Part shown: piece after piece, positions 27,716 through 34,716 of the stretch
How the letters are laid out: every line of letters begins with the position of its first letter
Numbering within the stretch: position 1 is the stretch's first letter
NCBI GenBank assembly: GCA_938001915.1
Contig: CALLBD010000011.1
Location: 62,001-126,000, forward strand
Length of the DNA stretch: 64,000 nucleotides
Direction: 5' to 3'
Source: an uncultured Caulobacterales bacterium
Lineage (GTDB): Bacteria > Pseudomonadota > Alphaproteobacteria > Caulobacterales > Maricaulaceae
Made by a program: the position numbers and the translations under genes
Notes under the pieces: model-generated
The model's database searches: none
The model's input: the letters and a program-made list of their open reading frames with translations, nothing else
Told to the model about the DNA's origin: nothing

Positions 27716-30610
27716 ATGAATACTCGGCTAAGAACATTACTCGTAACCGCCTCAATTGGGTTGGCCCTTTCAGCCTGTAGAGCGACCGATAACGCCGCAG
27801 AGAATATTTCCTCTATTGCCCTGCCAGCCGGGGTCACCAAAGTTGAAACCGTCAAGGCGGCAAAAGGCGATGAAGTTGTCATTCCTTTTACGAAATATAA
27901 GCTCGACAACGGCCTGACGGTTGTTCTCCATCAGGACAAATCCGACCCTCTTGTGCATGTCGACGTCACTTACCACGTCGGCTCAGGCCGCGAAGAACCG
28001 GGCCGCTCGGGATTTGCACATTTTTTTGAACATATGATGTTTCAGGGCTCGGAGAATGTGAAGGATGAGGAGCATTTCAAAATAATCAGCGAGTCGGGTG
28101 GCACGTTGAACGGCACGACTAATGGCGACCGCACTAATTATTTTGAGACAGTTCCCTCTAATCAGCTCGAGAAAATGTTATGGCTCGAGGCTGACCGCAT
28201 GGGTTTCTTCCTTGATGCTGTCACCCAAGAGAAATTCGAAGTCCAGCGTGAGACGGTTAAAAACGAACGCGGTCAACGGGTCGACAATCGCCCATATGGC
28301 TTGCGTTTCGAGCGCATCGGTGAAGCCATGTACCCTGAGGGCCACCCCTATAGCTGGTCCACAATCGGGTATCTCGAAGATTTAGATCGCGCTAATTTGA
28401 CGGATTTAAAAAAATTCTTCCTCAAATGGTATGGACCGAATAATGCGACCCTAACCATTGGCGGAGATTTGGATAAGCAACAAACATTGGAGTGGGTCAA
28501 AACCTATTTCGGCACTATTCCCGCCGGTCCAGAGGTCGAGAAACCAAAGAAGCAACCCGCCACGCTTGATAAGGATCGCTATATTTCCCTAGAAGACAAT
28601 GTTCAACAACCCGAATTAAATATGGTTTGGCCAACTGTCTATGCAAACCATCCTGATGAAGCCCCTCTAGATGTCTTGCAAAACATCATGGGCGGTGGCC
28701 AAACATCCCTCTTTTACAAAAATTTACAAAAGCCGGGGCTGGCCGTTAACGCATTCAACTTCCACAGATGCCAAGAAATCAGCTGTACCTTTAATGTGCT
28801 TATTCGTGCAAACCCATCGAAAGTAAGCGGATTGGCTGAAATCGAAAAAATCATACGGGACAGCTTCATTGAATTTGAAAGCCGCGGCGTTGAGGATGAT
28901 GATCTTACGCGTGTTAAGTCCTCTATTGTCAGCAGCCTTATTTACGGTCTCGAGTCTGTTTCCGGAAAAATGAGTCAACTCGCCGCCTATGAGACTTATC
29001 GAGATAACCCAAATGGCATCGGCGATGATATTGCCCGCTACGAAAATGTCACCAAAGCGGACGTCATGCGCGTCTATGAGAAATACATTAAGGGTAAACC
29101 CGCCGTCATCATGTCTATTGTTCCAAAAGGCAAACCGAATATGATTGCGGCAGCCGACACGTGGGAACGCTACGAGCGCATTATTCCGGATACATCGGGC
29201 GAAACTGATGACTTTAGTTGGACACGCCCAGAGGACCCCGAAGGACTAAATCGTTCTATTCAACCGCCCGCAGGGCCAAACAATCCGCAAATCAAAGTTC
29301 CCGAGACATATGAGTTCTCGGTCGGTGACGGCATTGAAGTCTTGGGAGCGCGCAACACCGAAGTTCCCACAACAACAATAAATCTACGCATCAAAGCTGG
29401 GCAAAGTCACGAGACATTAGACAAACTTGGCTTGGCCGCGATGACCGCAGGCTTGCTTAATGAGGGTACAACTGAGCGCAGCGCTGAGGAGCTTTCCAAT
29501 GAGCTTGCAAAACTCGGCTCCTCCGTGTCCTTCAATGCGGGAGAAACCTTCTCCACGATGAACATACGGACGCTCACTAAAAATTTGGACGCAACCCTGG
29601 CGATTGCCATGGAGAAGCTGCTTAAGCCAAAGTTTGATCAGGCGGATTTTGATCGGGACAAGGCCAATGCTCTGCAAGGTATCAAAGCGAATAAAAAAGA
29701 AGCTTCGCCCACGGCGTCGAATATCTTCAACAAGATGATGTATGGTGCTGATAACCCTACCGCCTATGCGAATAGCGGGACCGAAACGAGCGTTGAAAAT
29801 ATCACCTTGGATGATGTCAGAACTTTCTACGCAAACCACTATTCGCCCAAAATTGCCTCAATTATTGCGGTGAGCGATTTAGACAGCACCGCTATGAAAA
29901 GAGCCCTTAAGCCGTTTTCCGATTGGACGGGCGATGATGTCGCGCAAGCCGAGGTGAAACCTTTTCCGAAACTCGCGGGTGGGACATTGTTCTTCTTGGA
30001 CAAGCCAAATGCGGCGCAAAGCGAAATCCGTATTGGTAAACGTGCCCTTCCCTATGATGCGACAGGCGATTATTACAAGTCTAATGTGATGAATTACCCG
30101 CTCGGCGGGGCTTTCAACAGCCGTATAAATCTGAACCTTCGCGAGAATAAGGGTTACACCTATGGCGCTCGGTCCTTCTTTAACGGCAATGAAAGCGGCG
30201 GCTGGTACCGCGCGGGAGCGGGCGTTCGGGCCGATGCAACGGCCGCCTCAATCGTCGAATTTGTGAATGAAATTAGCGGCTATTATTCAGACGGGGTGAC
30301 GCCTGATGAAATAGACTTTACCAAATCATCGCTTGGGCAATCAGATGCCCGGGCCTATGAGACGCCAAGGCAGAAATTAGGTTTTCTCTCACGGATGGCA
30401 ACCTATGGCCTGAATGCTGACTATGTTGATGAGCAAACCGACATTTTAAAGAAAATGACCAAGGCCGATTTTGACGCCCTCGCCAAAGAACATCTTAATC
30501 TGGATGACATGATTATGGTGGTCATCGGAGACAAATCGAAGGTATATGATGACGTGGCCGCCTTAGGGTACAAAATGGTCGAGATAGATGCGGATGGGAA
30601 CCCAATCTAA
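27716..30610 (+). CDS. M16-family zinc peptidase (insulinase/pitrilysin type), predicted lipoprotein
   Basis: Large two-domain metallopeptidase of 964 residues. The signal ends at the lipobox SAC (C21). The first M16 unit has the inverted zinc motif H102-FFEH-106 with the downstream glutamate region around EKFEVQRETVKNERGQR; the second, catalytically silent half is visible around residues 530-940 (LGLAAMTAGLLNEGTTERS, RENKGYTYGARSFFN). Such secreted lipoproteins degrade short peptides at the envelope (family knowledge). It follows the M48 gene by 83 bases in the same direction, though a separate promoter is possible. Confidence 0.93.
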   Translation: MNTRLRTLLVTASIGLALSACRATDNAAENISSIALPAGVTKVETVKAAKGDEVVIPFTKYKLDNGLTVVLHQDKSDPLVHVDVTYHVGSGREEPGRSGFAHFFEHMMFQGSENVKDEEHFKIISESGGTLNGTTNGDRTNYFETVPSNQLEKMLWLEADRMGFFLDAVTQEKFEVQRETVKNERGQRVDNRPYGLRFERIGEAMYPEGHPYSWSTIGYLEDLDRANLTDLKKFFLKWYGPNNATLTIGGDLDKQQTLEWVKTYFGTIPAGPEVEKPKKQPATLDKDRYISLEDNVQQPELNMVWPTVYANHPDEAPLDVLQNIMGGGQTSLFYKNLQKPGLAVNAFNFHRCQEISCTFNVLIRANPSKVSGLAEIEKIIRDSFIEFESRGVEDDDLTRVKSSIVSSLIYGLESVSGKMSQLAAYETYRDNPNGIGDDIARYENVTKADVMRVYEKYIKGKPAVIMSIVPKGKPNMIAAADTWERYERIIPDTSGETDDFSWTRPEDPEGLNRSIQPPAGPNNPQIKVPETYEFSVGDGIEVLGARNTEVPTTTINLRIKAGQSHETLDKLGLAAMTAGLLNEGTTERSAEELSNELAKLGSSVSFNAGETFSTMNIRTLTKNLDATLAIAMEKLLKPKFDQADFDRDKANALQGIKANKKEASPTASNIFNKMMYGADNPTAYANSGTETSVENITLDDVRTFYANHYSPKIASIIAVSDLDSTAMKRALKPFSDWTGDDVAQAEVKPFPKLAGGTLFFLDKPNAAQSEIRIGKRALPYDATGDYYKSNVMNYPLGGAFNSRINLNLRENKGYTYGARSFFNGNESGGWYRAGAGVRADATAASIVEFVNEISGYYSDGVTPDEIDFTKSSLGQSDARAYETPRQKLGFLSRMATYGLNADYVDEQTDILKKMTKADFDALAKEHLNLDDMIMVVIGDKSKVYDDVAALGYKMVEIDADGNPI

Positions 30611-30994
30611 ATTCGTTCACCGCCAATAGACGCAAAGTAAGTCAAGTGAGGTGTTTTACGTTGATAAAACGCTCGTCCAACTTTGAGATTATTGGATCGA
30701 ACATATATTAGACCAGAAAATAGCTGTGGTATTTTCCCCTAACCGTGACGAAGGTCACGGTCCCAGCGCGTCTGCTGAGATAGATATATAGTTGCCGGAC
30801 AGATTTGGCTCAATTTATGGGGCGTAAATCGCCATTATTTAGCTGGCGACCTTATTTGCCTCGCGCTGTTTTTACAGCGTGAGGCGAATAGGGTTCACAA
30901 GGTTGCAGAAAAGCTATTTCTGGCCTTATATATCTTTGGGCGCATAATTTTCAAAACGGACATTTTACGCCCTCAAACGCCAATGAGGTCTTAT
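30611..30994 (+). other. Hairpin-rich intergenic leader before the TIR gene
   Basis: A 384-base stretch without a convincing ORF between the M16 peptidase and the TIR-TPR gene. It holds three strong inverted repeats: ACCGTGAC/GTCACGGT at 30742-30761; a 16-pair stem at 30854-30889 with a TTTT loop; and CAGAAA/TTTCTG at 30906-30922, bracketed by AAGG/CCTT. None is followed by a T-tract, so they are not simple terminators. Confidence 0.6.
30854..30889 (+). repeat. 16-bp hairpin, G-U pairs only on the plus strand
   Basis: ATTTGCCTCGCGCTGT and ACAGCGTGAGGCGAAT pair over 16 positions around a TTTT loop. Two positions are not Watson-Crick (T30857 with G30886; G30863 with T30880). Both are G-U in plus-strand RNA but A-C mismatches on the minus strand, so a plus-strand RNA structure is favoured. 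It ends about 105 bases before the TIR start. Confidence 0.7.
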
Positions 30995-32998
30995 ATGTCT
31001 GCCCCCGGGACTGAAGAAAAACGCTACAGAGCGTTTATTAGTTACAATCATCAAGACTGGAAGTTCGCAAAGCGTCTTCATACGAGGCTCGAAAATTTCT
31101 CTTTCGCAGACAAGGCGACGCCAGGTAAACCAAAACCTCTCTTCCCAATTTTCATAGACAATAATGAACTCAAGGCTGGCTCAAAACTGGATGATGCCAT
31201 TCAAGAGGCCCTTAGGAAAAGCGACTTTCTAATCGTAATCTGTTCAGGGAGTTCAGTTAAGTCAAAATGGGTCAAGGCGGAACTCGCCCTAATGAGGGAG
31301 ACGCGCACAGACTCAAAAATCATCGGGGTCATTCCTCCGAAGGGTGGAAATGAAGCACATCTCGCCGAGCTGATGGGGGCAGGTTCAGAACACCTAGCTG
31401 CAGATTTTCGGAAGGGGAAAAATCATGCCTTACAGCTCTCAAAAATCGCGGCGACGATATTGAATGTCGAGCTCGATGAGCTATATCAACGCGCAGCCCG
31501 ACGGAAAAACAAGCAAATGTTAGGGTTAGGCGCGGCTCTATCCGTAATCGCGACACTGATGTCAGGTCTAGCCGCCAACGCCTATCTCGCGGAAAAAGAG
31601 GCGGTGCGGCAAAGACAGCAATCTGAGGAAGTCATAGCCTTTATGATTGATGAATTCAGAGATGACCTTGAGAAACTCGACCAGTTAGACCTGCTATCTG
31701 GGGTTGGGGCTAAAGCGCAAGATTATTTTGAAAACAGAGATCTCGATGCCCTGTCGGATAGTTCTGTACTGTTGCAATCTCGAACGTTGAGACAACTCAG
31801 TGATGTCGACGAGAAGCGCGGAGAAATAGGACTTGCGAAAGAAAGAATTATCGGTGCTCACGCCGCCTCATCGCTGATGATGCGGCGGCGCCCTGACCAA
31901 ATCGAGACCCTGAAAGAACACGCCGAAAACTCCGATTACTGGGGCTATCTGGAATATCAACTTGGGCACTTGAAGAAAGCAAAGGATCTTTTTCAAACGG
32001 CCAAAGATACCTATGAAATTGGAAGAACACTATATCCTAATGATGCTGATATAGCCTGGAAAGAAAGTACAGCCGATCAAAATATCGGGATTATGCTTTT
32101 ACAAATGGGACGGGCAAATGATGCTAGGCCCTATATAGAGCGCACATTGCGGATTTATGAGGAAGAATATAACAAGGAAAGTCTGAACGAAGAGCGGCTC
32201 TATGGGTACGTAAATACATATACTTGGTATATTCGTACCCTCCCCGACGACACCCCAATCTCATTCCTATACGACACACGGCAGAAACAATTAAACTTAT
32301 TCGATGACATGCGTCAGAAAGGCGCTCGAACAATTCTCAATCAGGCCGAAAAGCTAAATGTTGAACGTGCTGTTGTAATATTACTTCTCCAAAGCGGACG
32401 GGACGATGAAGCGGAGGCTCTTATGTATTCCGTACAAAAGGCGTTCAAAACCCTCCTAAAACACGACCCAAATAATGTTGGCTGGCGTCGACATCTTATG
32501 CGTTCGAAACTTACACTTGCTCTTTTGCATCACAAATATGGACGTCTAAATGAGCGTAACAGTTTAATTGATGAAACGCTAAAACTAGGCGAGAAACCTA
32601 ATGGTGAAAAATGGGGGCTGACCACGGACATAGATCGCCGGCTAAATCGCCTGACTGCCTATCGCTTGTTTGACGAGGGCAAACCTCAGCAAGCCTTCAA
32701 TGTCTTAAATCTTGCCCAAAAGAAAATCGAGGACCATTGGAAGGGCGATTACAATCCCCGCGTAAAATACACCCTCGCTAGCCTCAAGAGTTTCAAAGCA
32801 GAACTTCTAAAAAAGACGGGACGTGTTGACGAAGCAAACACCGAGCATGACAATATTTTAAACCTCCTATCTGGAAAAGACAGCTACTCGGTAGCGGAGC
32901 AGAAACTGCAATATGAAGCGTATACGGAGCTCGGGCAAGTTGACAAAGCGATGGACTTGCAAACGAAACTAAGAGCGCGGGGCGTGGCACTGGACTGA
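30995..32998 (+). CDS. TIR domain - transmembrane - TPR-like protein
   Basis: A 667-residue protein. Residues about 10-135 form a TIR domain: the first strand and box YRAFISYNHQDW, the middle FPIFIDNNELKAGSKLDDAIQEAL, and FLIVICSGSSVKSKWVKAELALM, where E96 sits where NAD-cleaving TIRs have their glutamate. A transmembrane helix follows (about 174-198) and then a long helical region with TPR-like pairs (LGHLKKAKDLFQTAK, MGRANDARPYIERTL, SGRDDEAEALMYSVQ, TGRVDEANTEH). The start at 30995 has GAGG upstream; an ATG four codons earlier is possible. TIR proteins act in signalling or antiphage NAD depletion; no partner gene is adjacent, so the role is open. Confidence 0.85.
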   Translation: MSAPGTEEKRYRAFISYNHQDWKFAKRLHTRLENFSFADKATPGKPKPLFPIFIDNNELKAGSKLDDAIQEALRKSDFLIVICSGSSVKSKWVKAELALMRETRTDSKIIGVIPPKGGNEAHLAELMGAGSEHLAADFRKGKNHALQLSKIAATILNVELDELYQRAARRKNKQMLGLGAALSVIATLMSGLAANAYLAEKEAVRQRQQSEEVIAFMIDEFRDDLEKLDQLDLLSGVGAKAQDYFENRDLDALSDSSVLLQSRTLRQLSDVDEKRGEIGLAKERIIGAHAASSLMMRRRPDQIETLKEHAENSDYWGYLEYQLGHLKKAKDLFQTAKDTYEIGRTLYPNDADIAWKESTADQNIGIMLLQMGRANDARPYIERTLRIYEEEYNKESLNEERLYGYVNTYTWYIRTLPDDTPISFLYDTRQKQLNLFDDMRQKGARTILNQAEKLNVERAVVILLLQSGRDDEAEALMYSVQKAFKTLLKHDPNNVGWRRHLMRSKLTLALLHHKYGRLNERNSLIDETLKLGEKPNGEKWGLTTDIDRRLNRLTAYRLFDEGKPQQAFNVLNLAQKKIEDHWKGDYNPRVKYTLASLKSFKAELLKKTGRVDEANTEHDNILNLLSGKDSYSVAEQKLQYEAYTELGQVDKAMDLQTKLRARGVALD

Positions 32999-33355: not shown

Positions 33356-33525
33356 GTTTGATTCAAAGTTTCTGGGATAGGTGGGCGCATATTCAGGGAC
33401 TGATGTGACCGGATATGGTTGTACTCCTTGAGCCACAGATTGATGACTATCTGTGCTTGCTGGATACTCATGAACCATTCCGCATTTATATCCCCAAGAT
33501 TTACTTGGCGGATCAAACGCGCGGG
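33346..33525 (-). pseudogene. C-terminal fragment of an IS3-family transposase (OrfB)
   Basis: About 60 residues on the minus strand match the end of an IS3-type integrase-core transposase: the run NAEWFMSIQQAQIVINLWLK followed by EYNHIRSHQSLNMRPPIPET and a stop. The catalytic DDE residues upstream are missing, so it is a dead 3' remnant. The upstream break is near 33525, next to a perfect eight-base inverted repeat. It marks this gap between the TIR gene and asd as a site of past insertion and decay. Confidence 0.75.
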
Positions 33526-33607: not shown

Positions 33608-34645
33608 TTAGGCCGCTTTAGATTGGGCGTTGCGAGGAAGTTTTCTATTCGCGAGTAATTCCGCGATCTGCACCGTATTTAACGCGGCCCCCTTGCGCAG
33701 GTTATCGGACACGCACCAGAAGTTCAGCGTATTGTCCTGGGTGCTGTCTTCCCGCAGACGTGAAATATATGTCGCGTAATCACCGACACATTCAACTGGC
33801 GTGACATAACCGCCCTCTTCGTCTGGCTTATCAACAACCATAATGCCTGGGCTTTCACGAAGAAGCTCGCGAGCCTCATCAGCACTCAGCTCATTTTCTA
33901 ATTCAACATTGATGCTCTCTGCATGCCCGACAAATGTTGGAACCCTAACACATGTCGCAGAAACTTTGACATTTTTGTCGAGGATTTTCATCGTCTCGGC
34001 TTTCATTTTCCACTCTTCTTTCGTATCGCCGCCCTCCATAAAGACATCGATTTGCGGAATTACGTTGAAAGCAATTTGCTTAGTGAAATTGATGGGTTGG
34101 AAATGATCATTTGAATAAATGCCCTTGGTTTGGAGCCAAAGCTCATCCATATTTTTCTTCCCGCCGCCCGATACAGATTGGTAAGTTGAAACGACAACAC
34201 GTTTTACTTTGGCGCGATCATGTAAGGGCTTCAGCGCGACCACCATTTGGATGGTTGAGCAATTTGGATTGGCAATGATACCTTTTTTGAAGTTCATGAC
34301 TTCATCAGCATTTACCTCTGGCACGATAAGCGGCACATCAGGGTCCATGCGCCAGGCCGAGGAATTGTCGATAACAACGCATCCGGCGGCCGCAATCTTC
34401 GGCGACCATTTTTTAGAGACGTCACCGCCTGCACTCATCAACGCAATATCGACAGTCGTGAAATCAAAGGTATCGAGATCTTCGCATTTGATGTCTTGGT
34501 CGCCATAGCTGACCTCCCGGCCAACAGATTTACGGCTCGCGAGGGCATGGACCGCATCAACGTGCAAATCGCTCTCGGCCAAAATCGTAAGCATTTCGGT
34601 CCCGACATTACCTGTGGCCCCTACGACGGCAAAACGATAGCCCAT
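33608..34645 (-). CDS. asd: Aspartate-semialdehyde dehydrogenase
   Basis: Reduces aspartyl phosphate to the semialdehyde, the branch point to lysine/diaminopimelate, threonine and methionine. The start is set at ATG 34645 (MGYRFAVVGATGNVGTEM), with GGAG seven bases upstream; an ATG four codons earlier overlaps that ribosome site. Of the 345 residues, the catalytic C129 is in IIANPNCSTIQ, and SGGGKKNMDELW and VRVPTFVGHAE are further family segments. Located alone on the minus strand between the IS remnant and a small membrane protein gene. Confidence 0.97.
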   Translation of the reverse strand: MGYRFAVVGATGNVGTEMLTILAESDLHVDAVHALASRKSVGREVSYGDQDIKCEDLDTFDFTTVDIALMSAGGDVSKKWSPKIAAAGCVVIDNSSAWRMDPDVPLIVPEVNADEVMNFKKGIIANPNCSTIQMVVALKPLHDRAKVKRVVVSTYQSVSGGGKKNMDELWLQTKGIYSNDHFQPINFTKQIAFNVIPQIDVFMEGGDTKEEWKMKAETMKILDKNVKVSATCVRVPTFVGHAESINVELENELSADEARELLRESPGIMVVDKPDEEGGYVTPVECVGDYATYISRLREDSTQDNTLNFWCVSDNLRKGAALNTVQIAELLANRKLPRNAQSKAA

Positions 34646-34716
34646 GATGATCTCCATTTGATCGGTTAATAAAAAGCGAGCGGCTCCTACGCCAGAGCGG
34701 CAAGAATCGCAAGGCC

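What the first reader, a model, noticed from the sequence alone, without database searches (positions are those of the whole stretch)
30611..32998. TIR-transmembrane-TPR protein isolated next to a decayed IS
The 667-residue gene carries a TIR domain with a candidate catalytic glutamate (E96), one membrane helix, and a long helical TPR-like C-terminus. Bacterial TIR domains are known NAD-cleaving effectors in antiphage and signalling systems. Here no partner gene is adjacent; an IS3 remnant follows downstream and a structured leader precedes it, so the gene may have moved in. TPR-like repeats next to a membrane-anchored TIR could be a sensor module.
Basis: partly seen in the sequence, partly recalled or inferred. 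Interest (0 to 1): 0.6.

Follow-up and report, generated by a model that had tools for sequence, protein, structure and literature searches.

The report
Orphan membrane TIR-TPR signalling receptor
The gene codes for a membrane protein with a probable NAD+-cleaving TIR domain inside the cell and a large TPR sensor probably outside it; it is a stray member of a little-described bacterial family that is usually encoded beside nucleotide-sensing (SLOG) partner genes, so it looks like part of a TIR-to-SLOG signalling route.

Summary
The 667-aa ORF (30995-32998, +) is TIR, one TM helix, then a TPR solenoid; E96 in the WVKAE motif is invariant in 61 relatives. An IS3 integrase fragment lies downstream, and the site between the M16 protease and asd genes varies between species: directly adjacent in three relatives, different cargo in others. 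The host belongs to the genus containing Litorimonas cladophorae. The window holds no defence island.

TIR-TM-TPR genes recur in Alpha- and Gammaproteobacteria. In 45 of 79 sampled loci a nearby gene encodes a SLOG domain: TPR-S/YpsA-like SLOG, with or without a class III cyclase, usually beside a Crp-like regulator, or SLOG with two SLATT-like membrane domains. Across 137 genomes of the host family, TIR-TPR and TPR-S/SLOG co-occur in 46 of 49 each. In Maricaulis the cluster is nearly universal, and syntenic in all 14 loci examined.

The window gene is an orphan: it and one 47%-identical gene in Hellea form a separate lineage without adjacent partners. The window's genome carries the SLOG and Crp genes on another contig.

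Best reading: a membrane-anchored NAD+-cleaving receptor using Thoeris-like TIR-to-SLOG logic. No function was tested. New variant of a known kind.

The parts
30995..32998 (+). TIR-TM-TPR gene, 667 aa (alternative in-frame start at 30983, 671 aa)
   Evidence: ORF list; Pfam; model pLDDT 87.1
31022..31444 (+). TIR domain, about residues 10-150
   Evidence: Pfam TIR_2, ThsB_TIR and TIR above cut-off; family profile matches plant TIRs, TcpB and AbTir
31268..31282 (+). WVKAE motif; W92 and candidate catalytic E96 (codon 31280-31282)
   Evidence: invariant in 61 relatives; aligns with the W...E motif of TIR chain 7uxr
31517..31576 (+). single transmembrane helix, about residues 175-194
   Evidence: hydropathy 1.85; positive-inside bias puts the TIR in the cytosol (window net +3 N side, +1 C side; family mean +3.8/+0.3; 55 of 61)
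31607..32977 (+). helical TPR solenoid, about residues 205-661, predicted periplasmic
   Evidence: model and PDB fold matches
30848..30895 (+). 22-bp hairpin in the 384-nt leader; role unknown
   Evidence: fold z -6.0 for the leader; no Rfam match; unique in the genome
33379..33510 (-). decayed IS3-type integrase fragment
   Evidence: PF13683 rve_3 E 1.5e-9
27716..30610 (+). flanking M16 peptidase gene, left edge of the variable site
   Evidence: Pfam; relatives
33608..34657 (-). flanking asd (semialdehyde dehydrogenase) gene, right edge of the variable site
   Evidence: Pfam; relatives

Best explanation
The gene encodes a single-pass membrane receptor. A TPR solenoid, most likely in the periplasm, senses an unknown cue. 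That lets the cytosolic TIR domains cluster and cleave NAD+. In the wider family the product (ADP-ribose or a cyclic ADP-ribose isomer) is read by a SLOG protein encoded in the same cluster. The window copy is an orphan that was gained at a variable chromosomal site. It either signals in trans to the SLOG/Crp genes elsewhere in the same genome or acts alone by draining NAD+. Shown: domain order, intact catalytic motif, SLOG fold of the usual partner, co-occurrence, and the variable site. Inferred: NADase activity, topology, the messenger, the trans link and the cue.
For: TIR and E96/W92 conserved. One TM with positive-inside bias in 55 of 61 members. TPR fold like peptide sensors Rap/NprR and MalT. 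The partner protein of Litorimonas cladophorae models at pLDDT 88.9: residues 211-383 match YpsA SLOG (Z 18.9), 2-214 the ASK1 TPR region (Z 17.7), 402-510 part of a class III cyclase (Z 13.4). In Thoeris a TIR product, 3'cADPR, binds the SLOG of ThsA (PMC11204291), and the YpsA-like SLOG clade includes members that sense cADPR (PMC9503650). A SLOG gene lies near the TIR-TPR gene in 45 of 79 loci. TIR-TPR and TPR-S/SLOG co-occur in 46 of 49 each among 137 genomes; in the genus exactly six species have both and twelve have neither (not phylogenetically independent). The window genome has TPR-S/SLOG and Crp genes on contig C73.
Against: The window gene has no adjacent partner, and its lineage (window plus G035 C14) lies on a long branch of uncertain position, so it may have left the pathway. 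No NADase activity is shown here; some TIRs with the glutamate lack detectable activity (EcThsB2, PMC11204291). The TIR fold was not separately matched to the PDB because the TPR part filled the fold search. Topology rests on charge bias only.
Confidence: 0.5

Rival explanations
1. Stand-alone abortive-infection effector: the TPR senses a phage-related cue and the TIR destroys cellular NAD+, needing no partner.
For: Orphan gene in a variable site with an IS remnant; found in only one other searched genome at high similarity; other single-gene TIR defences exist (SpbK, PMC12847820, abstract read).
Against: No defence genes in the window; the other orphan sits among housekeeping genes beside rplQ; no relative in phage records; a periplasmic TPR would see little of intracellular phage proteins.
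Confidence: 0.2
2. Physiological stress or envelope signalling rather than immunity: a TIR receptor feeding a SLOG protein and, in Maricaulis, a cyclase and Crp regulator; the window gene is a divergent paralogue with the same kind of role.
For: Cluster in nearly all Maricaulis genomes and in one conserved place in 14 of 14 loci examined; Crp-like gene next to the SLOG gene in most loci of the host family; intact-looking class III cyclase fused to the SLOG protein in Maricaulis and Hellea balneolensis.
Against: Other branches carry SLATT-like membrane domains typical of conflict systems, and a trypsin-like membrane protein in Litorimonas; distribution outside Maricaulis is patchy; the window gene itself lies at no conserved place.
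Confidence: 0.22
3. The TIR domain is a non-catalytic scaffold and the protein only assembles complexes.
For: TIR domains often act as scaffolds; some relatives in other genera have eroded TIR domains but keep TM-TPR (L023, L024).
Against: E96, W92, S84 and S90 invariant across the family alignments, which include both orphans; association with SLOG nucleotide sensors.
Confidence: 0.08

Closest known systems
Thoeris (ThsB TIR plus ThsA SIR2-SLOG or TM-macro)
   Same: Two-protein logic of a TIR enzyme beside a SLOG sensor; the partner SLOG fold is YpsA-like
   Different: TIR here is membrane-anchored with a long TPR; partners are TPR-S/SLOG(/cyclase) or SLOG-SLATT, no SIR2 or macro domain found; the window copy has no adjacent partner
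TPR-S / SLOG / SLATT nucleotide-based conflict systems predicted by Burroughs, Aravind and colleagues
   Same: PF20308 TPR-S and SLATT domains present in partner proteins; the TPR-S region matches the ASK1 TPR
   Different: Their 2015 and 2020 papers were not held, so whether this exact TIR-TM-TPR cluster was described could not be checked; my recollection, not tested, is that TPR-S was predicted to sense NAD+-derived signals
Bacterial TIR NADases such as AbTir
   Same: Sequence profile matches; same W...E spacing in a bacterial TIR chain, 7uxr
   Different: The matched chains are TIR domains without this membrane TPR module; activity of the window protein is unmeasured
PADLOC candidate PDC-S66
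   Same: Best PADLOC match, 1.1e-9
   Different: Matches the TIR part only (residues 9-112)

Membership tests
TIR domain superfamily, NADase-competent type | TIR fold by sequence profile | tested here: met
   three Pfam TIR models above cut-off
TIR domain superfamily, NADase-competent type | conserved glutamate in the W...E motif | tested here: met
   E96 invariant in 61; aligned with 7uxr
TIR domain superfamily, NADase-competent type | NAD+ cleavage | not testable with these tools
   needs an assay
Thoeris | adjacent thsA gene | tested here: not met
   no thsA-like gene beside the TIR gene; neighbours are M16 peptidase and asd
Thoeris | partner with SIR2-SLOG or TM-macro domains | tested here: not met
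   family partners show TPR-S/SLOG(/cyclase) or SLOG-SLATT, no SIR2 or macro match
TIR-NLR / STAND proteins | NTPase domain between TIR and repeats | tested here: not met
   no NTPase model in Pfam scan; a TM helix directly precedes the TPR solenoid
TIR-SAVED / TIR-STING CBASS effectors | SAVED or STING domain with CD-NTase neighbour | tested here: not met
   no such domain and no CBASS match among window ORFs; PADLOC SAVED_TIR matches the TIR part only
TIR-TPR/SLOG cluster of the host family | TIR-TM-TPR protein of this family | tested here: met
   aligned with cluster members across TIR, TM and TPR
TIR-TPR/SLOG cluster of the host family | small DPxIxN protein and SLOG gene next to it | tested here: not met
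   absent at this locus; SLOG and Crp genes present on contig C73

The most novel reading that the evidence does not exclude
TIR-TM-TPR receptors make an NAD+-derived messenger that is read by SLOG proteins and, in Maricaulis, converted into cyclic-nucleotide and Crp-driven transcription: a TIR pathway used for signalling rather than suicide, with orphan receptors such as the window gene feeding it in trans.
Probability: 0.2. Interest if true: 0.85.

Novelty: new variant of a known kind. Interest (0 to 1): 0.55.

Why it matters
Known bacterial TIR systems are mostly studied as suicide defences. A family with one TIR receptor architecture and two kinds of SLOG partner (membrane SLATT-like, or cyclase/Crp-linked) would extend Thoeris-like NAD+ signalling to a membrane receptor. 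Its near-universal cluster in Maricaulis gives a way to test whether bacterial TIR signalling also has an everyday role.

Tried and rejected
Close relatives by short-peptide scan of genome contigs: none. Alignment A1 was too divergent to scan with; the narrower A2 worked. Defence island in the window: only the TIR gene matched PADLOC. Phage origin: no match in phage records; plasmid matches are weak and partial. Riboswitch or known RNA in the leader: none in Rfam; leader copies elsewhere in the genome: none. Direct PDB fold match for the TIR part: not listed because TPR matches filled the list, which is inconclusive. Sequence match of the SLOG-SLATT profile to PDB: only a weak DprA hit, so its SLOG part rests on profile comparison with the TPR-S/SLOG proteins (95.7%) and motifs. 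Key papers by Burroughs and Aravind were not held.

Full report
What is there. The 30995-32998 (+) ORF (667 aa; an in-frame ATG at 30983 gives 671) was read directly. Pfam places TIR_2, ThsB_TIR and TIR above their cut-offs, with TPR models near cut-off in the C-terminal part. PADLOC and NCBIfam matches cover the TIR part, apart from a weak NCBIfam chaperone match in the TPR region. E96 lies in WVKAE and is invariant in 61 relatives, with S84, S90, W92, E132, A136 and R166. A profile of the family's TIR part matches plant TIRs, TcpB and AbTir in the PDB, and the single-sequence alignment to 7uxr pairs W92 and E96 with the same motif.

Architecture. Hydropathy gives one membrane segment at about 175-194. 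Charge bias favours a cytosolic TIR and a periplasmic TPR in 55 of 61 members; this is inference, not proof. The AlphaFold model (pLDDT 87.1) shows the TIR, a long helix 160-197 and an all-helical solenoid to residue 661 that resembles LGN, MalT domain III and Rap/NprR TPRs. Within Maricaulis homologues the stretch around and just after the membrane helix is the most conserved (73-75%) and the C-terminal repeats among the least (40-52%), as expected of a constant transducer with a variable sensor, though weaker constraint would look the same.

Genome and locus. One same-genus genome (G013) holds a contig of the same length (899,074) as Litorimonas cladophorae NZ_BMYV01000002.1, with a 100% match to the G013 protein used as query; NCBI places that species in Robiginitomaculaceae, Maricaulales. 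The flanking M16 peptidase and asd genes are about 40-80 bp apart in G005, G014 and G017, but have unrelated cargo between them in G013, G007 and G016. The TIR gene is seen at this site only in the window's genome. Its GC3 (0.47) is a little below that of its neighbours (0.53). An IS3-type integrase fragment at 33379-33510 (-) is confirmed. The leader is structured (z -6.0) but matches no Rfam family, is unique in the genome and resembles none of the fetched relatives. Among 62 window ORFs only the TIR gene matches PADLOC at 1e-8; Pfam shows mainly housekeeping genes.

Relatives. The nearest relative is 47% identical, in G035 (its contig C63 has the length, 110,960, of a contig of Hellea sp. 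MAG-46), beside rplQ and without a partner. In the tree the two form a clade with full support on a long branch; no third member appeared among 398 genomes of the order. Looser relatives (about 25-35%) are common: 63 of 137 family genomes have some match, including other TIR architectures such as TIR with WD40-like repeats.

The partner genes. In most genera of the family that have it, the TIR-TM-TPR gene is followed by a small protein, in several genera by an oppositely oriented Ig-TM-trypsin-like protein, then a TPR-S/SLOG protein and a Crp-like regulator. The L. cladophorae SLOG protein models at pLDDT 88.9: residues 211-383 match YpsA (Z 18.9), 2-214 the ASK1 TPR region (Z 17.7) and 402-510 part of a class III cyclase (Z 13.4). 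Maricaulis and Hellea balneolensis members carry a fuller cyclase. In 79 named loci, 27 have this SLOG type nearby and 18 have a second type whose members match a SLATT model in 15 of 16 cases, mostly below the curated cut-off in the member shown, and whose N-terminal part aligns with the first SLOG at 95.7% probability. Of the 34 loci without a SLOG hit, 10 have fewer than three downstream genes in the fetched DNA; 24 have more and truly lack a detected partner there. A small protein ending in a DPxIxN-like motif lies just downstream in many loci of both types.

Co-occurrence. In 137 genomes of the host family, TIR-TPR (as I compiled it: strong matches, plus G062 and G139) and TPR-S/SLOG are each in 49 and together in 46; the six exceptions are MAGs 67-82% complete. 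Fisher p is 5e-29, or 2e-20 without Maricaulis, but genomes are related, so these are not independent trials. In the genus, six species have both and twelve neither. In the Maricaulis genus group 18 of 19 genomes have the TIR-TPR gene, and the cluster is syntenic in 14 of 14 examined. The window's genome has TPR-S/SLOG and Crp genes on contig C73, which ends within the next cluster gene, so a clustered TIR may be missing from the assembly (89.65% complete).

How it probably works. Thoeris shows a TIR product binding a SLOG (PMC11204291; PMC9503650). By analogy, the TPR senses a cue, the TIR cleaves NAD+, and a SLOG protein responds through SLATT-like membrane domains or through cyclase/Crp. 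For the orphan in the window, signalling in trans to the C73 genes or NAD+ drain alone are both open.

Limits. No activity, ligand, topology or phenotype was measured. The TIR part was not matched structurally on its own. Whether the cluster has been described in papers not held here is unknown.

Noticed in passing
L219:4621-7310 (window genome contig C73): TPR-S/SLOG gene, Crp-like gene and a partial gene running off the contig end: the likely remainder of a TIR-TPR/SLOG cluster in the same genome.
   Followed up: partly
L110:12389-14683 (-): Conserved cluster gene with bacterial Ig domain, coiled coil, TM and trypsin-like domain between the TIR-TPR and SLOG genes in Litorimonas, Hellea and Robiginitomaculum.
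   Followed up: partly
L192:6325-8160 and neighbours: Maricaulis SLOG protein fused to a class III cyclase, next to a Crp-like regulator, at a fixed chromosomal place.
   Followed up: partly
L023:1381-3417 (-); L024:1021-3030 (+): TM-TPR proteins whose N-terminal TIR domain is eroded (no or sub-threshold TIR match).
   Followed up: no
L152:12117-14655: Arenimonas locus: TIR-TM-TPR, two small proteins ending in DPRI/VxN, then SLOG with two SLATT-like membrane domains.
   Followed up: partly
window:30611-33607: The M16-asd interval is a variable site across the genus, with different cargo in G013, G007 and G016.
   Followed up: partly
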